Positions 757-14,693 of a stretch of DNA of 25,854 nt are shown here, piece by piece. Under the pieces are notes generated by a model. That model did not search any database, had not been told where the DNA came from, and saw nothing but the letters and a program-made list of their open reading frames with translations. Each line of letters starts with the position of its first letter. The first letter of the stretch is position 1. The stretch comes from Candidatus Zixiibacteriota bacterium (lineage in GTDB: Bacteria > Zixibacteria > MSB-5A5 > DSPP01). The stretch lies in contig JAKEHY010000034.1 of NCBI GenBank assembly GCA_022614805.1, positions 1 to 25,854 of the forward strand, given 5' to 3'. Position numbers and translations under genes: made by a program.

Positions 757-773
757 CTCATCGTGTAAATAAG

Positions 774-865
774 CGGAGAGACTGGGATTCGAACCCAGGA
801 GGGCGCTTTTTAAACGCCCTACACGCTCTCCAGGCGTGCTCCTTCAACCGCTCGGACATCTCTCC
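774..865 (-). tRNA. tRNA-Ser (anticodon GGA)
   Basis: On the minus strand a 92-nt cloverleaf can be drawn: acceptor GGAGAGA pairs with TCTCTCC, followed by discriminator G at 774. The anticodon stem CACGC/GCGTG encloses CTGGAGA, giving anticodon GGA (reads UCC/UCU). The long variable arm with stem AGGGCG/CGCCCT is diagnostic of class II tRNAs such as Ser. The T-arm GGGTTCGAATCC is intact. CCA is not encoded. No T-rich terminator is visible past the 3' end; instead the DUF2087 gene starts converging after 17 bases. Confidence 0.96.
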
Positions 866-1080: not shown

Positions 1081-3249
1081 CTACCGGAAGTAGCGGTTCA
1101 ATTCCTCTTCCGTCAATTTTTCCTTTCCGTCCTCGGCAATCTCCACCGTCACCTTCCCTGCATCAAAACTGACCTGTTTCCCCAGCGCCACGTACTTGCC
1201 GAACTCCGGTTTGACCTTCAGCATCGCAAAGTAGGCGGGGGAGAAGGGCTTGATTTTCACCACCGGTTTTTTATCGTCCCGGTCGGCTTCCACCCATCTC
1301 TCGTTTTGCCGAAAGAAGGTCTTGCCGCCCGCATTGGTTAACGCCCGAACTCCGCTTGCGTTATTGCCGTATTGGGCGTCAAAACCTCCGTTAAGAGTGA
1401 GTGCCCCCTTCGCTTCATTTGCCATTTTGCTTGCCGCCACGGCTTGACGACCAGCCGGGGCCGACATATCGGCCGCTTCGCGGCGGAATTGTTCCGCAGC
1501 TTGAGCCAAAGGTGTGGCCGGGTCAACCTTGACCAGAAAGGAGGTGTACTGGTTGATGATACCGTATTTTTTGGACAGCGTGATGATTTCATCCACCACT
1601 TCCTGCGACTGGCCGGAGAGCCGAACCTGGTCAATCAAGTGCCCCACCCGGCGGGTGGCCCAGATTTTGGGAATCGATTTTTCCCAACCATTTTGGACCG
1701 AAAAATCAGCCGGAAACTCAAATACGGTCCGTTCACCGTTCAATTCGCCGGTCAGAGTGACAGATGTTTTCCCCGAGCCATTGAATTTGCCCACCACCAC
1801 CAGCTGCGAACCGGCGAAAAGGTCGGGTAAATCGTTGGGATAGGCGGCAAAGGTTCTGACCGAGCCGAAATCCAACTTCAAATTTGCCAGAACCGGCGCG
1901 GAGATTTTCTTGTAGAAGTTGGAGACTTTGACCTCGATGTTCTCGGTCGGTACCACGTAATCCGAAGCGCCGGAGTTTTGCTCCGCCAGCTTGTCCAATA
2001 GATGGGTGTTCACGTCAAAGCCCACGCCGAAATCGAAGATTTTTACCTTGGTGTCGTTGGCCCGTTTGGCCATTGTTAGAATTTCATCGACATTGGTGAT
2101 TCCGACCGTCGGCAGTCCGTCGGTCAGGAATATGGCATAGTTCAAACGGCCGCTTGCAAGCTGGCTCAACCCAGCCTCCAGCGCCCCGGCTATGTTGGTG
2201 CCCCCTTCGGCTTCGATTAATTCCACGAACTGTTCGGCTTCCCGAAGATTACCGGATGTGGCCGGTTTCGTTCCTTCGGCAAAGAGGCGCACCTGGTCGT
2301 CAAAATCGACGATGTTGAACCGGTCGCCCGGATTCAAGCTGTGCAGGCAGAAAAGGAGGGCTTCCTTGGCCTGTTTCATTTTATCCCCCCTCATACTGCC
2401 GGAGCTGTCGAGAATGAAAAGGATGTCTTTGGTCAGGGTTTTAGTCGCTGACGGTTTGACCTCCGGCGAAATCAAGGCCATAAAATAGTTTTCACCGTCC
2501 TGCCGGTCGGTCAAAAGGGAAAAGGCAATATCCTTCGGGCTGACGGCATAGTACAAAACAAAATCGCCGCCCACTTCTCTCGCATTATCCACCCAGTCAA
2601 TTTTGGCTGATTTTTCTCCGCTTCGGTCGATTCTGACTTCGTGCGAAGGGGAATAGATGTTTTTCAGGGGGACGTTGGAATTCAACTGCATCTGCAGGCT
2701 GATGTTGTTGACGCCGGTTGGGACCATTTCCTCCCGGCCGAAGTTGTACTTGTATTCAAAAAGCCCGGCAAACGGTTTCAAAACCTGGCTGTAGGAGAGC
2801 TTGATTTTGGCTTCGCCGTTGGCGGGAATGGGGAAGATGCGCGCCCGAAAAAGCCCGCAGCCGGCGAACTCCAGCAAGGCCGGGTCGTTCATCTGGCGCA
2901 CGATTCCCTCGTAAATCCGGCGGGCCTCGTTGGCTTCCAAAACCTCCCCCGGCACTTCCTCGCCGTTCACATACAGGTAAAATTTGGAAATCGATGCCCC
3001 TTCCGGAACGGGAAAAAGATAGATTCCCTCCAGCATCCGCGGGAAGCTGTTTTGATATACCTGCTCCACGGTCGTGGTCGCCAGCTGGCCGGTGATTTTC
3101 ACCCGCACGTCATAATCCTTGATGGAAAGATGATGCGGATAGGGCACCGGCATCGGTATGGGCCTTGGCGGAGGGACTATTACGATTCGGGCCTGGGTCT
3201 GGAAAAAAACGGTCAGTAAAACCGCTGCGGTCAGGAAGAGCTTTTTCAT
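1081..3249 (-). CDS. Secreted VIT and von Willebrand A domain protein
   Basis: A 722-residue exported protein. Residues 1-20 are a signal peptide (MKKLFLTAAVLLTVFFQTQA), followed by a proline-rich linker. Residues 38-160 form a VIT domain (vault/inter-alpha-trypsin) with the typical LEGIYLFPVPEGASISKF stretch. Residues about 274-440 form a VWA domain with an intact MIDAS metal site: DSSGS at 281-285 and FLTDG near 375. Such proteins usually act in metal-dependent adhesion or protein assembly at the envelope; the ligand is unknown. No C-terminal membrane anchor is seen. The ribosome binding site AAAGGAG sits six bases before ATG. It is the third gene of an ECF sigma/anti-sigma operon, 52 bases after the anti-sigma gene, with its own ECF-type promoter and an SD-covering inverted repeat in that gap, and a terminator after it. 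It is probably an output of the sigma factor. Confidence 0.93.
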   Translation of the reverse strand: MKKLFLTAAVLLTVFFQTQARIVIVPPPRPIPMPVPYPHHLSIKDYDVRVKITGQLATTTVEQVYQNSFPRMLEGIYLFPVPEGASISKFYLYVNGEEVPGEVLEANEARRIYEGIVRQMNDPALLEFAGCGLFRARIFPIPANGEAKIKLSYSQVLKPFAGLFEYKYNFGREEMVPTGVNNISLQMQLNSNVPLKNIYSPSHEVRIDRSGEKSAKIDWVDNAREVGGDFVLYYAVSPKDIAFSLLTDRQDGENYFMALISPEVKPSATKTLTKDILFILDSSGSMRGDKMKQAKEALLFCLHSLNPGDRFNIVDFDDQVRLFAEGTKPATSGNLREAEQFVELIEAEGGTNIAGALEAGLSQLASGRLNYAIFLTDGLPTVGITNVDEILTMAKRANDTKVKIFDFGVGFDVNTHLLDKLAEQNSGASDYVVPTENIEVKVSNFYKKISAPVLANLKLDFGSVRTFAAYPNDLPDLFAGSQLVVVGKFNGSGKTSVTLTGELNGERTVFEFPADFSVQNGWEKSIPKIWATRRVGHLIDQVRLSGQSQEVVDEIITLSKKYGIINQYTSFLVKVDPATPLAQAAEQFRREAADMSAPAGRQAVAASKMANEAKGALTLNGGFDAQYGNNASGVRALTNAGGKTFFRQNERWVEADRDDKKPVVKIKPFSPAYFAMLKVKPEFGKYVALGKQVSFDAGKVTVEIAEDGKEKLTEEELNRYFR

Positions 3250-3290
3250 AGTTTCTCCTTTCTCTATTCTGAATACTCAAAGGAGAAACT
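3250..3290 (-). promoter_or_regulatory. Shine-Dalgarno-sequestering inverted repeat
   Basis: AGTTTCTCCTTT and AAAGGAGAAACT (plus-strand 3250-3261 and 3279-3290) are perfect 12-base inverted repeats with a 17-base loop. In mRNA read from the sigma/anti-sigma genes the 3' arm contains the AAAGGAG ribosome binding site and ends at the ATG of the VIT/VWA gene, so translation should be blocked. Transcripts from the internal promoter at 3271-3298 would start near 3264 and lack the 5' arm. Confidence 0.7.
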
Positions 3291-3298
3291 TTTATTCC
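3271..3298 (-). promoter_or_regulatory. ECF-type promoter of VIT/VWA gene
   Basis: On the minus strand GGAATA (3298-3293), 16 bases, GTATTC (3276-3271). The nine bases GGAATAAAA, the inner TCT and the GTATT match the copy upstream of the sigma gene (5208-5235) at identical spacing. Predicted start near 3264, leaving about 14 bases of leader that keep the ribosome binding site. Confidence 0.6.
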
Positions 3299-3301
3299 TA
3301 G

Positions 3302-4639
3302 CTATTTTTTAAGCTTTTTCAACTCGGCCTGGATTTGCAAAAGCCTTTGGCGGGTGGAATCGGAAAGCTCTTTTTTCAAGAATTCATCAAGTCGTGTGTT
3401 AGCCATTTTGGCTTCATCTGAATTAGGTAAATGGCGGTTGAGGAAAAGGTAATGACCTCCAATGAAAATATAGAGCGTTTCTTCGCAGCTTTTGGCAAAG
3501 ACAAGAACTGGGTCTTCGCCTCCTTTTGAAATCAATTCACGAATTCCAGGGATTACGTTTGTCGTATCACTTGAAGACGAGGGAGGTGCACTCGCGGATA
3601 CACGTTCCTTCGTAGCGGGTTTGGGTGAAGTCGTGCTTGGCCTATCCGCTCCTGACACAATTACACCACGTTGTAACCTTAAAAGCTCTTCTACATAAAT
3701 TTTATGCAGTTTTATTGCCTCTGAGGTCAGTTTTTCAATGATTGAGTTTTGCGTATCCTTATCAACCATATCCCCGTTTTCTCGACCTCGAATTTGAATT
3801 CTGTCATCTTTTATTGTGACCCCTTGCTGTAGCTTAAGCAAGCTGTTTGCGTTTTGACTTGGAGATTTTTCAATCTCCTCTGCCGCGACTTTAACCTGCG
3901 AAGTGGCAACTTCCTTGCGAATTTCAGCTTTCTTTCCAGCGGTTCCGAGAACCGTGTCTCCTCTAATAGCTTCATCCCGCTCCGCATAAGCCGCTAAAGA
4001 GGGCTCTTCGTTCGATTTTTGCCCTTCAGGGGTAGCTAACGCTCTTCCGAGCGGAACCGAAGCAGCCGCAGCATTTTCAGCCGGTTTCTTGGAAAGTATG
4101 GCCGTTGGCCTTTCACGCGCAGGCTGATCGAGTCGTTTGTCTTCGACAAGGCCGATTTCTTTGTTCTTTTCTGCCGTCTGAAACTCCGACTCATCTTTTG
4201 CCTGTACTTGAACGGAATCGACTTTTCCTTCTTGAGCCAGCGTTTCCGGTTCAAATACCGGCGGGCGGAAGGTTTCCTTCTTCCATTGGTCCAGACTGAC
4301 AAAGGTCAGAAGAATGATTACCGCCACGCTCCCGGCTATGGCCAGCTTGCCGGTGGTAGGTCGAAAAAAACTCTCCAGCGCTTCCAGCCAAGCCGGGGAA
4401 GTCTTTTGTCTTTCGCGGATGGCCAGCTTGTTCTGCACCCGGCTGGCAAAGTTCTCCCAATACGCTTCCGAAAGCTGGGGCGCCGAGATTTTCTTGGCCA
4501 CGGCCTCCACCCGGGCAAATTCCTCCAGTTTCGCTGCGCAGGCCTCGCAGGTTTTCAAATGTTCCTCCAGCTTGGCCCGCTTGTCGTCGGAAAGCAGCCC
4601 ATCCAGATAGGCGGAAAGCCATTCGACGTTACACTTCAT
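3302..4639 (-). CDS. Membrane-anchored ZAS anti-sigma factor with large periplasmic domain
   Basis: A 445-residue protein. The N-terminus is a zinc-finger anti-sigma (ZAS, zf-HC2) domain with Cys3, His27, Cys31 and Cys34 (HxxxCxxC), which in this family binds the cognate ECF sigma factor in the cytoplasm. One membrane segment spans about 98-116. The remaining 330 residues would be periplasmic: a charged Lys/Glu-rich stretch, then residues about 240-292 (VATSQ, AAEEIE, LLKLQQGV, IRGREN) that resemble the plug of TonB-dependent receptors, with a weak second echo EELLRLQRGVIVSG at 318-330, and a helical C-terminus. This is far longer than simple anti-sigma factors. The start codon lies inside the end of the sigma gene (11-base overlap), so translation is probably coupled. 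The signal sensed is unknown. Confidence 0.88.
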   Translation of the reverse strand: MKCNVEWLSAYLDGLLSDDKRAKLEEHLKTCEACAAKLEEFARVEAVAKKISAPQLSEAYWENFASRVQNKLAIRERQKTSPAWLEALESFFRPTTGKLAIAGSVAVIILLTFVSLDQWKKETFRPPVFEPETLAQEGKVDSVQVQAKDESEFQTAEKNKEIGLVEDKRLDQPARERPTAILSKKPAENAAAASVPLGRALATPEGQKSNEEPSLAAYAERDEAIRGDTVLGTAGKKAEIRKEVATSQVKVAAEEIEKSPSQNANSLLKLQQGVTIKDDRIQIRGRENGDMVDKDTQNSIIEKLTSEAIKLHKIYVEELLRLQRGVIVSGADRPSTTSPKPATKERVSASAPPSSSSDTTNVIPGIRELISKGGEDPVLVFAKSCEETLYIFIGGHYLFLNRHLPNSDEAKMANTRLDEFLKKELSDSTRQRLLQIQAELKKLKK

Positions 4640-5198
4640 CGGCGGCCTCCTTTTTCGTCAACGCCTGCGCCAGCTTTTGCCGGGCACGGGCCAGACGGGA
4701 TAAAACCGTGCCAAGGGGAATTTCCAGCGTCCTGGCAATCTCCTCGCAGCTTAAATTTTCGTAAAACTTCAAAACCACCACTGCCTTGTAATCCGGCGAA
4801 AGGCGGTCGATTTCGCCTTCGAGCTTGGTTAAGTTTTTTTCCTCGGCGGTGGAAATCGATTCCGGGAAAATCCCCTGTTGCTCCAGCATTTGCTCCCAAT
4901 TTTCCGTGCGGCTTTCGTACAGCGTCAGCTTCTGGCGGCGGTGATAGTTGATGGAAAGATTCATACAAATCCGGTAGACATAGGTGTAAAAAGGGTAGTT
5001 TTCCTTAAAGCGCCCCAGCGCCTGGTAGGTTCTAATGAATGTCTCCTGGGCCAAATCATCGGCGGCATCCTTATCCTTGGTCATCCGATACGCCAGATAG
5101 AAAATCTTTTTCTGATAGCGAACCACCAGTTGGCGAAAGGCATTTTCGTTGCCGGCCTTGGCCTTTGCAATCAGTTCGCTGTCGGTGGCGTTTTCCAT
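4629..5198 (-). CDS. ECF RNA polymerase sigma factor (module 1)
   Basis: A sigma-70 family ECF factor of 189 residues from the start chosen here. Region 2 contains YQKKIFYLAYRMTKD, then DAADDLAQETFIRTY and the FYTYVYRICMN core. Region 4 has LSPDYKAVVVLKFYENLS, then CEEIARTLEIPLGTVLSRLA, the helix-turn-helix that reads the -35 box. I prefer ATG at 5198 (MENATDSEL). The upstream ATG at 5216 would lie inside the predicted ECF promoter, and the likely transcription start near 5201 leaves almost no leader; no ribosome binding site is present. The gene overlaps the anti-sigma gene by 11 bases and heads a three-gene operon. It probably recognises GGAATAAAA/GTATT-type promoters, present upstream of itself and of the VIT/VWA gene. 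Confidence 0.93.
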   Translation of the reverse strand: MENATDSELIAKAKAGNENAFRQLVVRYQKKIFYLAYRMTKDKDAADDLAQETFIRTYQALGRFKENYPFYTYVYRICMNLSINYHRRQKLTLYESRTENWEQMLEQQGIFPESISTAEEKNLTKLEGEIDRLSPDYKAVVVLKFYENLSCEEIARTLEIPLGTVLSRLARARQKLAQALTKKEAADEV

Positions 5199-5207
5199 CC
5201 GCATATA

Positions 5208-5235
5208 TAATACCATCGGAAGATAGTTTTATTCC
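5208..5235 (-). promoter_or_regulatory. ECF-type autoregulatory promoter of sigma factor 1
   Basis: On the minus strand GGAATA (5235-5230), 16 bases, GTATTA (5213-5208). It matches the element upstream of the VIT/VWA gene in both boxes and spacing. ECF factors commonly recognise a GGAA-type -35 box and activate their own gene. Predicted start near 5201, three bases before the chosen ATG. Confidence 0.6.
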
Positions 5236-12256: not shown

Positions 12257-12958
12257 CTACTGCCAGCCCTCGTCGGATGGTTCGGATGGATGAAATTCCA
12301 TCTCAAATTCCGGGTCGGCCTCGAAGGAATGAAAATCCATATCAAAGTCGGGTGCCTCGACCTCCTCGAGTCCGCTCGGGGGAAGGAAACCGAAATGTTC
12401 GAATTCCTCCATTTCGCCTGCTTCCTCCGGTACTTCCTCTTTCCATTCCAGCGATTCATCCCCCATCGGCCGGCCGGGGCCAGGGCCCATTTCGGGGCCA
12501 ATACCGTGGCCGGGACCTTTGAAGTGAAACATCTTCATCCGGTGCAGGCGATGTTTCATCATTCTTTTCCCCATTTTACCCTTCAGGGCGGCCCACTGCT
12601 CTTTCGTCAAAACCGAGCGGGAGGCGACCCGGCTTTGCAGCCGGTTTTGAGTCAACTGGCGGTCGAGCTCGGCCACCTGGTCGATTTTCCGGTCGATGGC
12701 GGACTGGTCGGGCTGGTCGGCCTGCATCAACTCCCGCAGTTCGATATGGGCGATTTGGCGTTCGGCAAAGAGACGGATGCGCTCTTTGGCCGACTCGCGG
12801 TGGATGGCGGCCATTTTTTGCTTCTGCTCATCGGAAAGCTTCAATTCGGCCTTCATTTTCGATTCTTCGGGCTTGACTTTTTTGCGCTGGGCCCAAACGG
12901 TCAGGGCCAGGCTTAAGACCAGCGCGGTTACCGTTGTTGCAACAAGTGTGCGTTTCAT
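12257..12958 (-). CDS. Spy/CpxP-like periplasmic protein with acidic Met/His-rich tail
   Basis: A 233-residue exported protein. Signal peptide MKRTLVATTVTALVLSLALT, cut near VWAQ. Residues about 35-130 are helical and carry two LTxxQ-type motifs (LKLSDEQKQKM and SVLTKEQWAAL), the mark of the Spy/CpxP/CnrX family of periplasmic chaperones and metal or stress sensors. Residues 130-150 are rich in Lys, His and Met (MGKRMMKHRLHRMKMFHF). The last 80 residues are acidic and full of Phe, Met, Glu and Pro, unusual for the family. GGAGGAAGGA precedes ATG. It is the last gene of ECF module 2, 18 bases after the other Spy-like gene. A metal-binding or envelope-stress role is inferred from family and context only. 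Confidence 0.82.
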   Translation of the reverse strand: MKRTLVATTVTALVLSLALTVWAQRKKVKPEESKMKAELKLSDEQKQKMAAIHRESAKERIRLFAERQIAHIELRELMQADQPDQSAIDRKIDQVAELDRQLTQNRLQSRVASRSVLTKEQWAALKGKMGKRMMKHRLHRMKMFHFKGPGHGIGPEMGPGPGRPMGDESLEWKEEVPEEAGEMEEFEHFGFLPPSGLEEVEAPDFDMDFHSFEADPEFEMEFHPSEPSDEGWQ

Positions 12959-12976
12959 TGTCCTTCCTCCTCTTGG

Positions 12977-13510
12977 TTAAGGGTTGGGTAAATTGCGAAC
13001 GATTTCACGTGCGATGCGCTCTTCGAACACAACCAAACGGGCCACCTGCTCGGTGGAGAGGGTCCGGCCGACGTTATGATAAAACTCCTCCCGGTTGGCC
13101 TCCTGCCGGCGGCGAAGTTCGTCCAGTTTGGCCAGCCGTTCCTTCAGTTCCCGTTCGGAAAGCCCCCCTTCTTCCTCCTCGTCCAGGGCGGCCATTTTAA
13201 CGTGGACGTGGCGGGTCAAAGCCTGAATGATTTCGGCGCGGGCGCGCAACAACTGCCGGGTCTTTTGCCGGTACTGGTTGAACACCGGCAGGAATTTGTC
13301 CCCCTGTTCGGGGCTCAAGTCGAGCGCTTCCACCAGCTTAAGCTTCATAAAGGTTTCAAATCGCTCCAACCGGCGGGATTGACCGGCGAAAGGCCGGTCG
13401 CGCATACGCGGCTGGGCCAAAAGGCCTTCGCCGCCGGACAACAGGAGCAAAAATGACAGGCCAATGATACCCCACCAGGTTTTTGGTTGTTTTAGTTTTT
13501 TCATATTCAA
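12977..13510 (-). CDS. Spy/CpxP-like periplasmic protein (possible sensor)
   Basis: A 177-residue protein with an N-terminal hydrophobic segment (WWGIIGLSFLLLLSGGEGLL) that acts as signal peptide or anchor, and an all-helical periplasmic part. Two LTxxQ-like motifs are visible, ALDLSPEQGDKFLP and TLSTEQVARLVV, with a long charged coiled-coil-like helix between them (SERELKERLAKLDELRRRQE). In the known CnrYXH system a protein of this fold (CnrX) senses metal together with an anti-sigma factor, so a sensor role is reasonable here, though the metal ligands of CnrX cannot be assigned. Start is TTG 13510 (GAGG eight bases before) or ATG 13504. It follows the anti-sigma gene by 21 bases. Confidence 0.78.
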   Translation of the reverse strand: MNMKKLKQPKTWWGIIGLSFLLLLSGGEGLLAQPRMRDRPFAGQSRRLERFETFMKLKLVEALDLSPEQGDKFLPVFNQYRQKTRQLLRARAEIIQALTRHVHVKMAALDEEEEGGLSERELKERLAKLDELRRRQEANREEFYHNVGRTLSTEQVARLVVFEERIAREIVRNLPNP

Positions 13511-13531
13511 AGTTTTCGCCTCGCTTTCGGT

Positions 13532-14080
13532 TTAGAGCTTGAAAGGGGTCAATTTTTCTTCCAGCGTTTTCAGCTGTTCATCGGACAGCGTGTAAACCAA
13601 CTCCTCCACTTTCATCGACCCGACCAGTTCCTCCTCCGCCTGGGCGGTTATGAAACTGACCGTGTTTTCGGGCAGGGGGAGGTCGGCCACCGTTTCGGCA
13701 AGCGGAGCGTTATAGTCAAAGGCCTCCTCGGCGGTAAGATTGGCCAGGTCGGGTTTCTCCTTGGACACGAACAAGGCGATGCCCACGACCAAAACCACAG
13801 CAAAAACCGGCAAACTCCAGCCCAAAATTGGTTTCCAACGGGGACGCAAGGAGATTTTTTCGATGCGCTCCCGCACCAAGGCCGGGAAGGAGGCCCAGTA
13901 ACTCTCCTCCGGCATCGGCAGCTGGTCGGCCTTCAGGGCATCGAAAAGCTCGCCGTATTCGGCGCGCCTGGCCTGGCAGGCCGGGCAGGATTTGAGATGC
14001 TCACCGAAAGCGGCGTCGATGTCGAGGGCCTTCAAGCCGTCCCATTTTTTCAGTTCTTCTTCGAATCTACGGCAGTTCAT
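13532..14080 (-). CDS. Membrane-anchored ZAS anti-sigma factor (module 2)
   Basis: A 182-residue zf-HC2 anti-sigma factor. Cys3, His28, Cys32 and Cys35 form the HxxxCxxC zinc motif; a membrane helix spans about 85-105 (PILGWSLPVFAVVLVVGIAL). The short periplasmic tail of about 75 residues is acidic and helical. After the zinc domain it has ESYWASFPALVRERI, resembling EAYWENFASRVQNKL at the same place in the anti-sigma factor of module 1, so the two are probably distant paralogues. The gene overlaps the sigma gene by 14 bases. It would hold the sigma factor at the membrane until an envelope signal, perhaps relayed by the Spy-like proteins, releases it. Confidence 0.9.
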   Translation of the reverse strand: MNCRRFEEELKKWDGLKALDIDAAFGEHLKSCPACQARRAEYGELFDALKADQLPMPEESYWASFPALVRERIEKISLRPRWKPILGWSLPVFAVVLVVGIALFVSKEKPDLANLTAEEAFDYNAPLAETVADLPLPENTVSFITAQAEEELVGSMKVEELVYTLSDEQLKTLEEKLTPFKL

Positions 14081-14651
14081 ATCGTCTCACGTCACCGGTT
14101 AATACGGTTTTCCATTCGGCCAGGTGCTTTTTCATTTTCTGCAGGGCTTGAAAGTAGTTGGCCTTCACCGCGCCGACCGACTTTCCCACAATTTGGGCAA
14201 TCTCCTCGTTGGATAGCTCGTCATAATGCCGCAAAATAAATATCGCCCGTTGCTTCGGCGGCAGTTTTTTCACCGCATCGGCTATTGCCCGTTTCAAACG
14301 TTCCGTATCTATATCGCTCAAACCCTCTTTCGGCTCTTCCGGCTTTTCCTCCGCTTCCAAAAGCGGCACCCAAGAGATGATTTTCTTCCGGCGGAGATGA
14401 TTGATGGCCAGATTGACCGTGGCGCGGTAAGCCCAGGTGAAAACGGAGGCCTCCCCCCGGAAGTCCGGTAGCATCTTGTACATCTTTACGAACACCTCCT
14501 GGGTCAAATCCTTGGCTTCTTCCTCGTCCCTAACCATCCGAAAGGCAACGGCATACACCCTCTTTTGGTAGAGCCGGACCAGCTCGTTGAAGGCCGCCTG
14601 GTCGCCGGATTTGAAGCGGGCCACCAGTTCCCGGTCTTCCCCAGCGGTCAT
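14067..14651 (-). CDS. ECF RNA polymerase sigma factor (module 2)
   Basis: A 194-residue sigma-70 family ECF factor. Region 2 shows NELVRLYQKRVYAVAFRMVR, then EEAKDLTQEVFVKMYKML and the FTWAYRATVNLAINHLRRKK core. Region 4 shows LPPKQRAIFILRHYDELSNE and the helix-turn-helix IAQIVGKSVGAVKANYFQAL. Sequence similarity to the sigma factor of module 1 is limited, so promoter specificity should differ. ATG 14651 (MTAGEDREL) is preferred; the frame could begin at a TTG 36 bases upstream, but that lies within a likely ECF promoter. It overlaps the anti-sigma gene by 14 bases and leads the four-gene operon ending at the terminator near 12203. Confidence 0.94.
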   Translation of the reverse strand: MTAGEDRELVARFKSGDQAAFNELVRLYQKRVYAVAFRMVRDEEEAKDLTQEVFVKMYKMLPDFRGEASVFTWAYRATVNLAINHLRRKKIISWVPLLEAEEKPEEPKEGLSDIDTERLKRAIADAVKKLPPKQRAIFILRHYDELSNEEIAQIVGKSVGAVKANYFQALQKMKKHLAEWKTVLTGDVRRYELP

Positions 14652-14666
14652 AGTTCTCTCACTTTG

Positions 14667-14693
14667 TTCGACAGCTATATCCGGCAAAGGTTT
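14667..14693 (-). promoter_or_regulatory. Possible ECF-type promoter of sigma factor 2
   Basis: On the minus strand AAACC (14693-14689) followed by TTT, then 16 bases after AAACC the box GTCGAA (14672-14667). AAC...GTC spacing of this kind is common for ECF promoters. Start near 14660, nine bases before the chosen ATG. Confidence 0.4.

What the first reader, a model, noticed from the sequence alone, without database searches (positions are those of the whole stretch)
3250..3298. Internal promoter overlaps a hairpin that hides the ribosome binding site only in read-through mRNA
A 12-bp perfect inverted repeat covers the Shine-Dalgarno sequence of the VIT/VWA gene. Its 5' arm lies inside the spacer of the internal ECF promoter, so transcripts starting there (near 3264) lack the blocking arm. 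Operon-length mRNA would be silent for VIT/VWA while the short mRNA would be translated. This is a compact promoter-choice switch that I have not seen described.
Basis: inference. Interest (0 to 1): 0.8.

Follow-up and report, generated by a model that had tools for sequence, protein, structure and literature searches.

The report
Anti-read-through hairpin inside an ECF promoter
In an uncultured bacterium and its relatives, the promoter of a stress-operon effector gene doubles as one half of an RNA clamp that should keep the gene untranslated in long read-through messages, a trick known until now mainly from phage T4; it is conserved only where such read-through can occur.

Summary
A perfect 12-bp inverted repeat (5' arm 3290-3279, 3' arm 3261-3250, minus strand) covers the Shine-Dalgarno of the VIT/VWA gene. 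Its 5' arm lies between the -35 (3298-3294) and -10 (3276-3271) of an ECF-type promoter. I compared relatives in Zixibacteria and Omnitrophota. Where sigma and anti-sigma genes lie directly upstream, spacer and start region are complementary although both sequences have diverged: own-pair duplex energy -18.2 kcal/mol against -11.9 for spacers swapped between genera (14 genera, 0 of 20,000 permutations). In one lineage the clamp moved from the SD to the AUG. Where VIT stands alone the signal is absent (9 genera), as it is at the sigma gene's own promoter. A translation block in read-through mRNA is thus well supported by comparison; no expression was measured. Verdict: a new, chromosomal, conserved variant of a known device.

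The parts
1081..3249 (-). VIT + VWA domain secreted protein gene (effector); ATG at 3249-3247
   Evidence: Pfam VIT 8.6e-27, VWA 8.7e-19
3302..4639 (-). zf-HC2 anti-sigma factor gene; stop TAG 3304-3302, 11 nt before the 5' arm
   Evidence: Pfam zf-HC2 2.2e-11; distance
4629..5216 (-). ECF sigma factor gene
   Evidence: Pfam Sigma70_r2 1.3e-17, r4_2 1e-13
5210..5235 (-). P1: sigma's own promoter motif GGAATAAAA-N13-GTAT
   Evidence: one of two perfect pattern matches in the 2.56-Mb genome; same motif before sigma in relatives
3271..3298 (-). P2: internal promoter of VIT, -35 GGAAT 3298-3294, -10 GTATTC 3276-3271, predicted start ~3264
   Evidence: second of the two perfect matches; same two sites in sister species G001
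3279..3290 (-). 5' (blocking) arm AGTTTCTCCTTT, inside the P2 spacer, absent from P2 transcripts
   Evidence: sequence; best partner of the start region lies in the spacer in most operon loci
3262..3278 (-). 17-nt loop; carries the -10 element
   Evidence: sequence
3250..3261 (-). 3' arm AAAGGAGAAACT containing the Shine-Dalgarno
   Evidence: sequence; fold

Best explanation
This is a read-through insulator. The internal ECF promoter P2 encodes in its spacer an RNA arm complementary to the start region of the VIT/VWA gene. Transcripts that enter from upstream (sigma/anti-sigma operon mRNA from P1, basal transcription, or in some lineages the housekeeping gene holA directly upstream) carry both arms and fold so that the SD or AUG is closed. 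Transcripts starting at P2 lack the 5' arm and are translated. VIT output thus depends on active sigma at P2 and not on the level of operon mRNA. Shown by comparison: paired arms, covariation, placement in the promoter spacer, restriction to the operon arrangement. Inferred: P2 start site, translation block, absence of VIT protein in the uninduced state.
For: Own spacer/own start duplex -18.2 vs -11.9 (sd 0.86) for permuted spacers over 14 operon genera, 0/20000. Nine solo genera: -9.5 vs -8.9, 4116/20000. Robust to trimming the -10, to one row per family, and within each phylum alone. Complete separation of operon from solo loci in excess pairing (U=0, p=4e-5); cost of opening SD..AUG rises by 6.4 kcal/mol on average in long mRNA of operon loci, -0.1 in solo. 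The best partner of the start region lies in or at the promoter spacer in nearly all operon loci and in one solo locus. The clamp covers the SD in most lineages but the AUG in L009, L011, L153 and L167. Sigma's own P1 shows no such pairing (own -7.5, permuted -7.9). Solo VIT genes mostly follow a divergent gene or a long gap. holA lies directly upstream of sigma in L113, L121, L126, L127. Anti-sigma stop codons lie 10-22 nt before the arm in most operon loci, so terminating ribosomes should not melt it.
Against: No transcript start, RNA structure or protein measurement; all organisms are known only from assemblies. Each hairpin alone is about a 5% event. Weak members: L007 (one mismatch, no modelled block), L022 (255-nt gap with a long inverted repeat), L167 (modest). 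Solo L012 has a 10-bp helix beside, not on, its SD. If P1 is the only upstream promoter, it is less obvious why VIT must be silenced on the long mRNA.
Confidence: 0.78

Rival explanations
1. The hairpin mainly serves the upstream sigma/anti-sigma mRNA: a processing, stabilising or terminating 3' stem-loop, with blocking of VIT as a side effect.
For: It lies 10-22 nt after the anti-sigma stop codon in most operon loci; such intergenic stem-loops are known to set operon stoichiometry (general knowledge).
Against: No U-tract follows it (no terminator called on the minus strand at this hairpin). A 3'-end stem-loop would not need to include SD or AUG, yet the 3' arm does so in all strong operon loci, and moves from SD to AUG. 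A stem for processing need not have its 5' arm inside the promoter spacer.
Confidence: 0.1
2. A conditional RNA switch: the long mRNA is normally closed but is opened by temperature, a ligand, an sRNA or ribosome traffic, so that it is an additional regulated source of VIT.
For: The helix is of moderate length (10-17 bp) and sits just after a translated gene.
Against: No conserved loop sequence or length, no Rfam family; arms differ completely between families, which leaves little for a specific ligand or sRNA.
Confidence: 0.08
3. A DNA-level operator: the inverted repeat binds a dimeric regulator over the promoter.
For: Perfect inverted repeat overlapping a promoter.
Against: Arm sequence is not conserved between families and arm spacing changes from 17 to more than 50 nt; G-U pairs occur; an operator should also persist in solo loci with the same promoter, and does not.
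Confidence: 0.03
4. Chance: pyrimidine-rich spacer against a purine-rich SD.
For: About 5% of GC-matched genes have similar upstream complementarity.
Against: Swapping spacers between genera abolishes the signal (0/20000); the AUG-type clamps are not pyrimidine tracts; solo promoters and P1 promoters of the same motif show nothing.
Confidence: 0.01

Closest known systems
[quoted passage not shown] PMC2988022 section 'Translational regulation')
   Same: Long upstream-started mRNAs sequester SD/AUG in a helix; transcripts from a promoter in the 5' arm region lack that arm and are translated.
   Different: Here chromosomal, in ECF sigma operons of at least two bacterial groups; upstream and internal promoters carry the same sigma motif rather than early vs late classes; the 5' arm sits between -35 and -10.
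IS10 and related transposase genes: protection from outside transcription by fold-back of read-through mRNA (own knowledge; not found in the held library)
   Same: Silences translation of transcripts that enter from outside.
   Different: Mobile element; the inverted repeat is the element's end, not a promoter spacer of a regulated chromosomal operon.
ECF sigma / zf-HC2 anti-sigma operons with autoregulation
   Same: Sigma, anti-sigma, downstream target, motif shared by sigma and target promoters.
   Different: No translational insulation of the target was found described in the searches made.

Membership tests
T4 gene e type read-through silencing (works like) | Helix sequesters SD and/or AUG in long mRNA | tested here: met
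   Fold and opening cost; prediction only
T4 gene e type read-through silencing (works like) | A promoter located so that its transcripts lack the 5' arm | tested here: met
   5' arm between -35 and -10 motifs; motif genome-unique and conserved. Start site itself not mapped
T4 gene e type read-through silencing (works like) | Upstream and internal promoters belong to different classes (temporal switch) | tested here: not met
   P1 and P2 share the same motif; a housekeeping source is only suggested by holA linkage
T4 gene e type read-through silencing (works like) | Measured repression of long-mRNA translation | not testable with these tools
   Needs reporters
Autoregulated ECF sigma / zf-HC2 anti-sigma operon | Sigma regions 2 and 4, adjacent zf-HC2 anti-sigma | tested here: met
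   Pfam
Autoregulated ECF sigma / zf-HC2 anti-sigma operon | Sigma and target share a promoter motif | tested here: met
Known Rfam RNA element | Covariance-model match | tested here: not met
   No match in the window

The most novel reading that the evidence does not exclude
A cellular class of read-through insulators: across at least two bacterial phyla, ECF promoters of operon-internal effector genes are selected to carry in their spacer an anti-SD or anti-AUG arm, gained or kept only when the gene follows sigma/anti-sigma, and free to move between SD and AUG. It may be common at internal promoters generally and missed because the arm is not part of the annotated leader.
Probability: 0.55. 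Interest if true: 0.75.

Novelty: new variant of a known kind. Interest (0 to 1): 0.64.

Why it matters
Internal promoters are usually read as adding mRNA to an operon. Here the promoter also encodes the off-switch for every mRNA that does not start at it, so transcript boundaries would decide which gene in an operon is translated. It extends a phage trick to chromosomal stress operons, explains how an effector can sit directly behind its own autoregulated sigma/anti-sigma genes without leaking, and gives a searchable signature (promoter spacer complementary to the downstream start region) and a simple insulator design.

Tried and rejected
One search folded the plus strand by mistake; replaced. 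The second sigma gene region in the window (12257-14687) was checked for a similar internal promoter and hairpin: none seen. A transcription terminator reading was dropped (no U-tract). DNA operator and chance readings: see rivals. Literature searches for a chromosomal ECF precedent found none, but the library lacks most subscription journals, and phage T4 is a clear precedent.

Full report
Observation. The VIT/VWA gene (1081-3249, minus strand) is the third gene of an operon ECF sigma (4629-5216) - zf-HC2 anti-sigma (3302-4639) - VIT/VWA. Its leader reads TAGGAATAAAAGTTTCTCCTTTGAGTATTCAGAATAGAGAAAGGAGAAACTATG.

Promoter. The motif GGAATAAA-N14-GTAT occurs exactly twice without mismatch in the 2.56-Mb genome: before VIT and before sigma. 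The sister species G001 has the same two sites and no others. In the 17 operons inspected, the sigma gene is preceded by the same motif type as VIT: GGAAT..GTAT in Zixibacteria, GGAAC..GTCTAA in Omnitrophota; in L126 the -10 is variant. This supports autoregulation by the operon's own sigma. It also means P1 and P2 should fire together, which argues against a switch between two promoter classes.

Relatives. Of 132 class genomes searched, 28 have the VIT protein; more loci came from genome contigs and Omnitrophota genomes. Sigma/anti-sigma context was assigned by tblastn and ORF inspection. Operon loci: L001, L002, L003, L004, L007, L008, L009, L011, L015, L021, L022, L153, L038, L053, L162, L167, L168, L169 (L162 only by the last codons of an upstream frame that resemble the anti-sigma end). 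Solo loci: L012, L013, L014, L016, L019, L020, L023, L025, L026, L027.

Covariation. With fixed windows (23-nt spacer; -20 to +13 of the start), own pairs in 14 operon genera average -18.2 kcal/mol; permuting spacers among genera gives -11.9, sd 0.86, 0 of 20,000 as low. Nine solo genera show no effect. The result holds when the -10 is trimmed away, for one locus per family, for Zixibacteria alone and Omnitrophota alone. Examples: L003 CUCCUGGUUU/AAACUAGGAG; L004 AAUUCCUUCCU/AGGAGGGAAUU; L015 a 16-17-bp helix with one bulge; L009 CUUUUCAUGACC/GGUCAUGAAAAG, which closes the AUG instead of the SD. Change of target from SD to AUG while complementarity persists is what selection on translation initiation predicts, and a DNA operator does not.

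Controls. (a) Solo VIT genes with the same promoter motif lack it; most follow a divergent gene or a long gap, so little read-through is expected. (b) The sigma gene's own promoter P1 lacks it, as expected if basal sigma must be translated. (c) In family f7, L021 (70-nt gap) keeps the hairpin, while L022 (about 255-nt gap with a long inverted repeat) has only weak pairing. (d) The best partner of the start region over the upstream stretch lies in or at the promoter spacer in nearly all operon loci and in one solo locus. (e) Modelled opening of SD..AUG costs on average 6.4 kcal/mol more in the long than in the short RNA for operon loci, -0.1 for solo loci (Mann-Whitney p 5e-5).

Mechanism. Long mRNAs carry both arms; the anti-sigma stop lies 10-22 nt before the 5' arm in most operon loci (2 nt in L003; 42-47 nt in L053 and L162), so terminating ribosomes should usually leave the helix intact. 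P2 mRNAs begin after the 5' arm. VIT is therefore expected only from P2. A source of housekeeping read-through is visible in four loci where holA (DNA polymerase III delta) lies directly upstream of sigma on the same strand; in the window the upstream gene is divergent, so there the source would be P1 or an unmapped basal promoter. This last point is inference.

Limits. The pattern was first seen by eye in a few loci before the test windows were fixed; the windows were then applied to all loci, and the same windows give nothing at solo loci. Permutation ignores shared ancestry within phyla, which the one-per-family version reduces. L169 has an alternative downstream start. Single-locus significance is modest.

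Known or new. A chromosomal, conserved use in autoregulated ECF operons, with the arm inside the promoter spacer, was not found in the papers searched, within the limits of that library.

Noticed in passing
window 5192-5235 (minus); L038, L167, L168 sigma starts: The sigma gene's promoter P1 lies so close to its start codon (ATG at -35+28 to +46) that the mRNA would be leaderless or nearly so; in Omnitrophota the pattern GTCTAAATG puts the ATG directly behind the -10.
   Followed up: partly
L113, L121, L126, L127; L156: holA (DNA polymerase III delta) is directly upstream of and co-directional with the ECF sigma gene in several Zixibacteria; in G047 (L156) a 331-aa ORF, probably holA, is followed by VIT with no sigma/anti-sigma between.
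   Followed up: partly
L020, about 100 nt upstream of the VIT start (minus orientation): A VIT gene counted as solo lies 96 nt behind a co-directional ORF on a short contig and has an SD-blocking partner just upstream of the -35 (GCAACCUC/GAGGUUGU), so the insulation may not be limited to sigma operons.
   Followed up: no
L022 / L127 intergenic region before VIT: A very long, nearly perfect inverted repeat without a T-run lies between anti-sigma and VIT in G022.
   Followed up: no
window 12257-14687 (minus): A second ECF sigma gene with a downstream membrane-type gene and two small secreted-protein-like genes, in the same orientation; no similar internal promoter or hairpin seen.
   Followed up: partly
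window 773-865 (minus): tRNA-Ser(GGA) found by ARAGORN but not reported by Rfam at gathering threshold.
   Followed up: no
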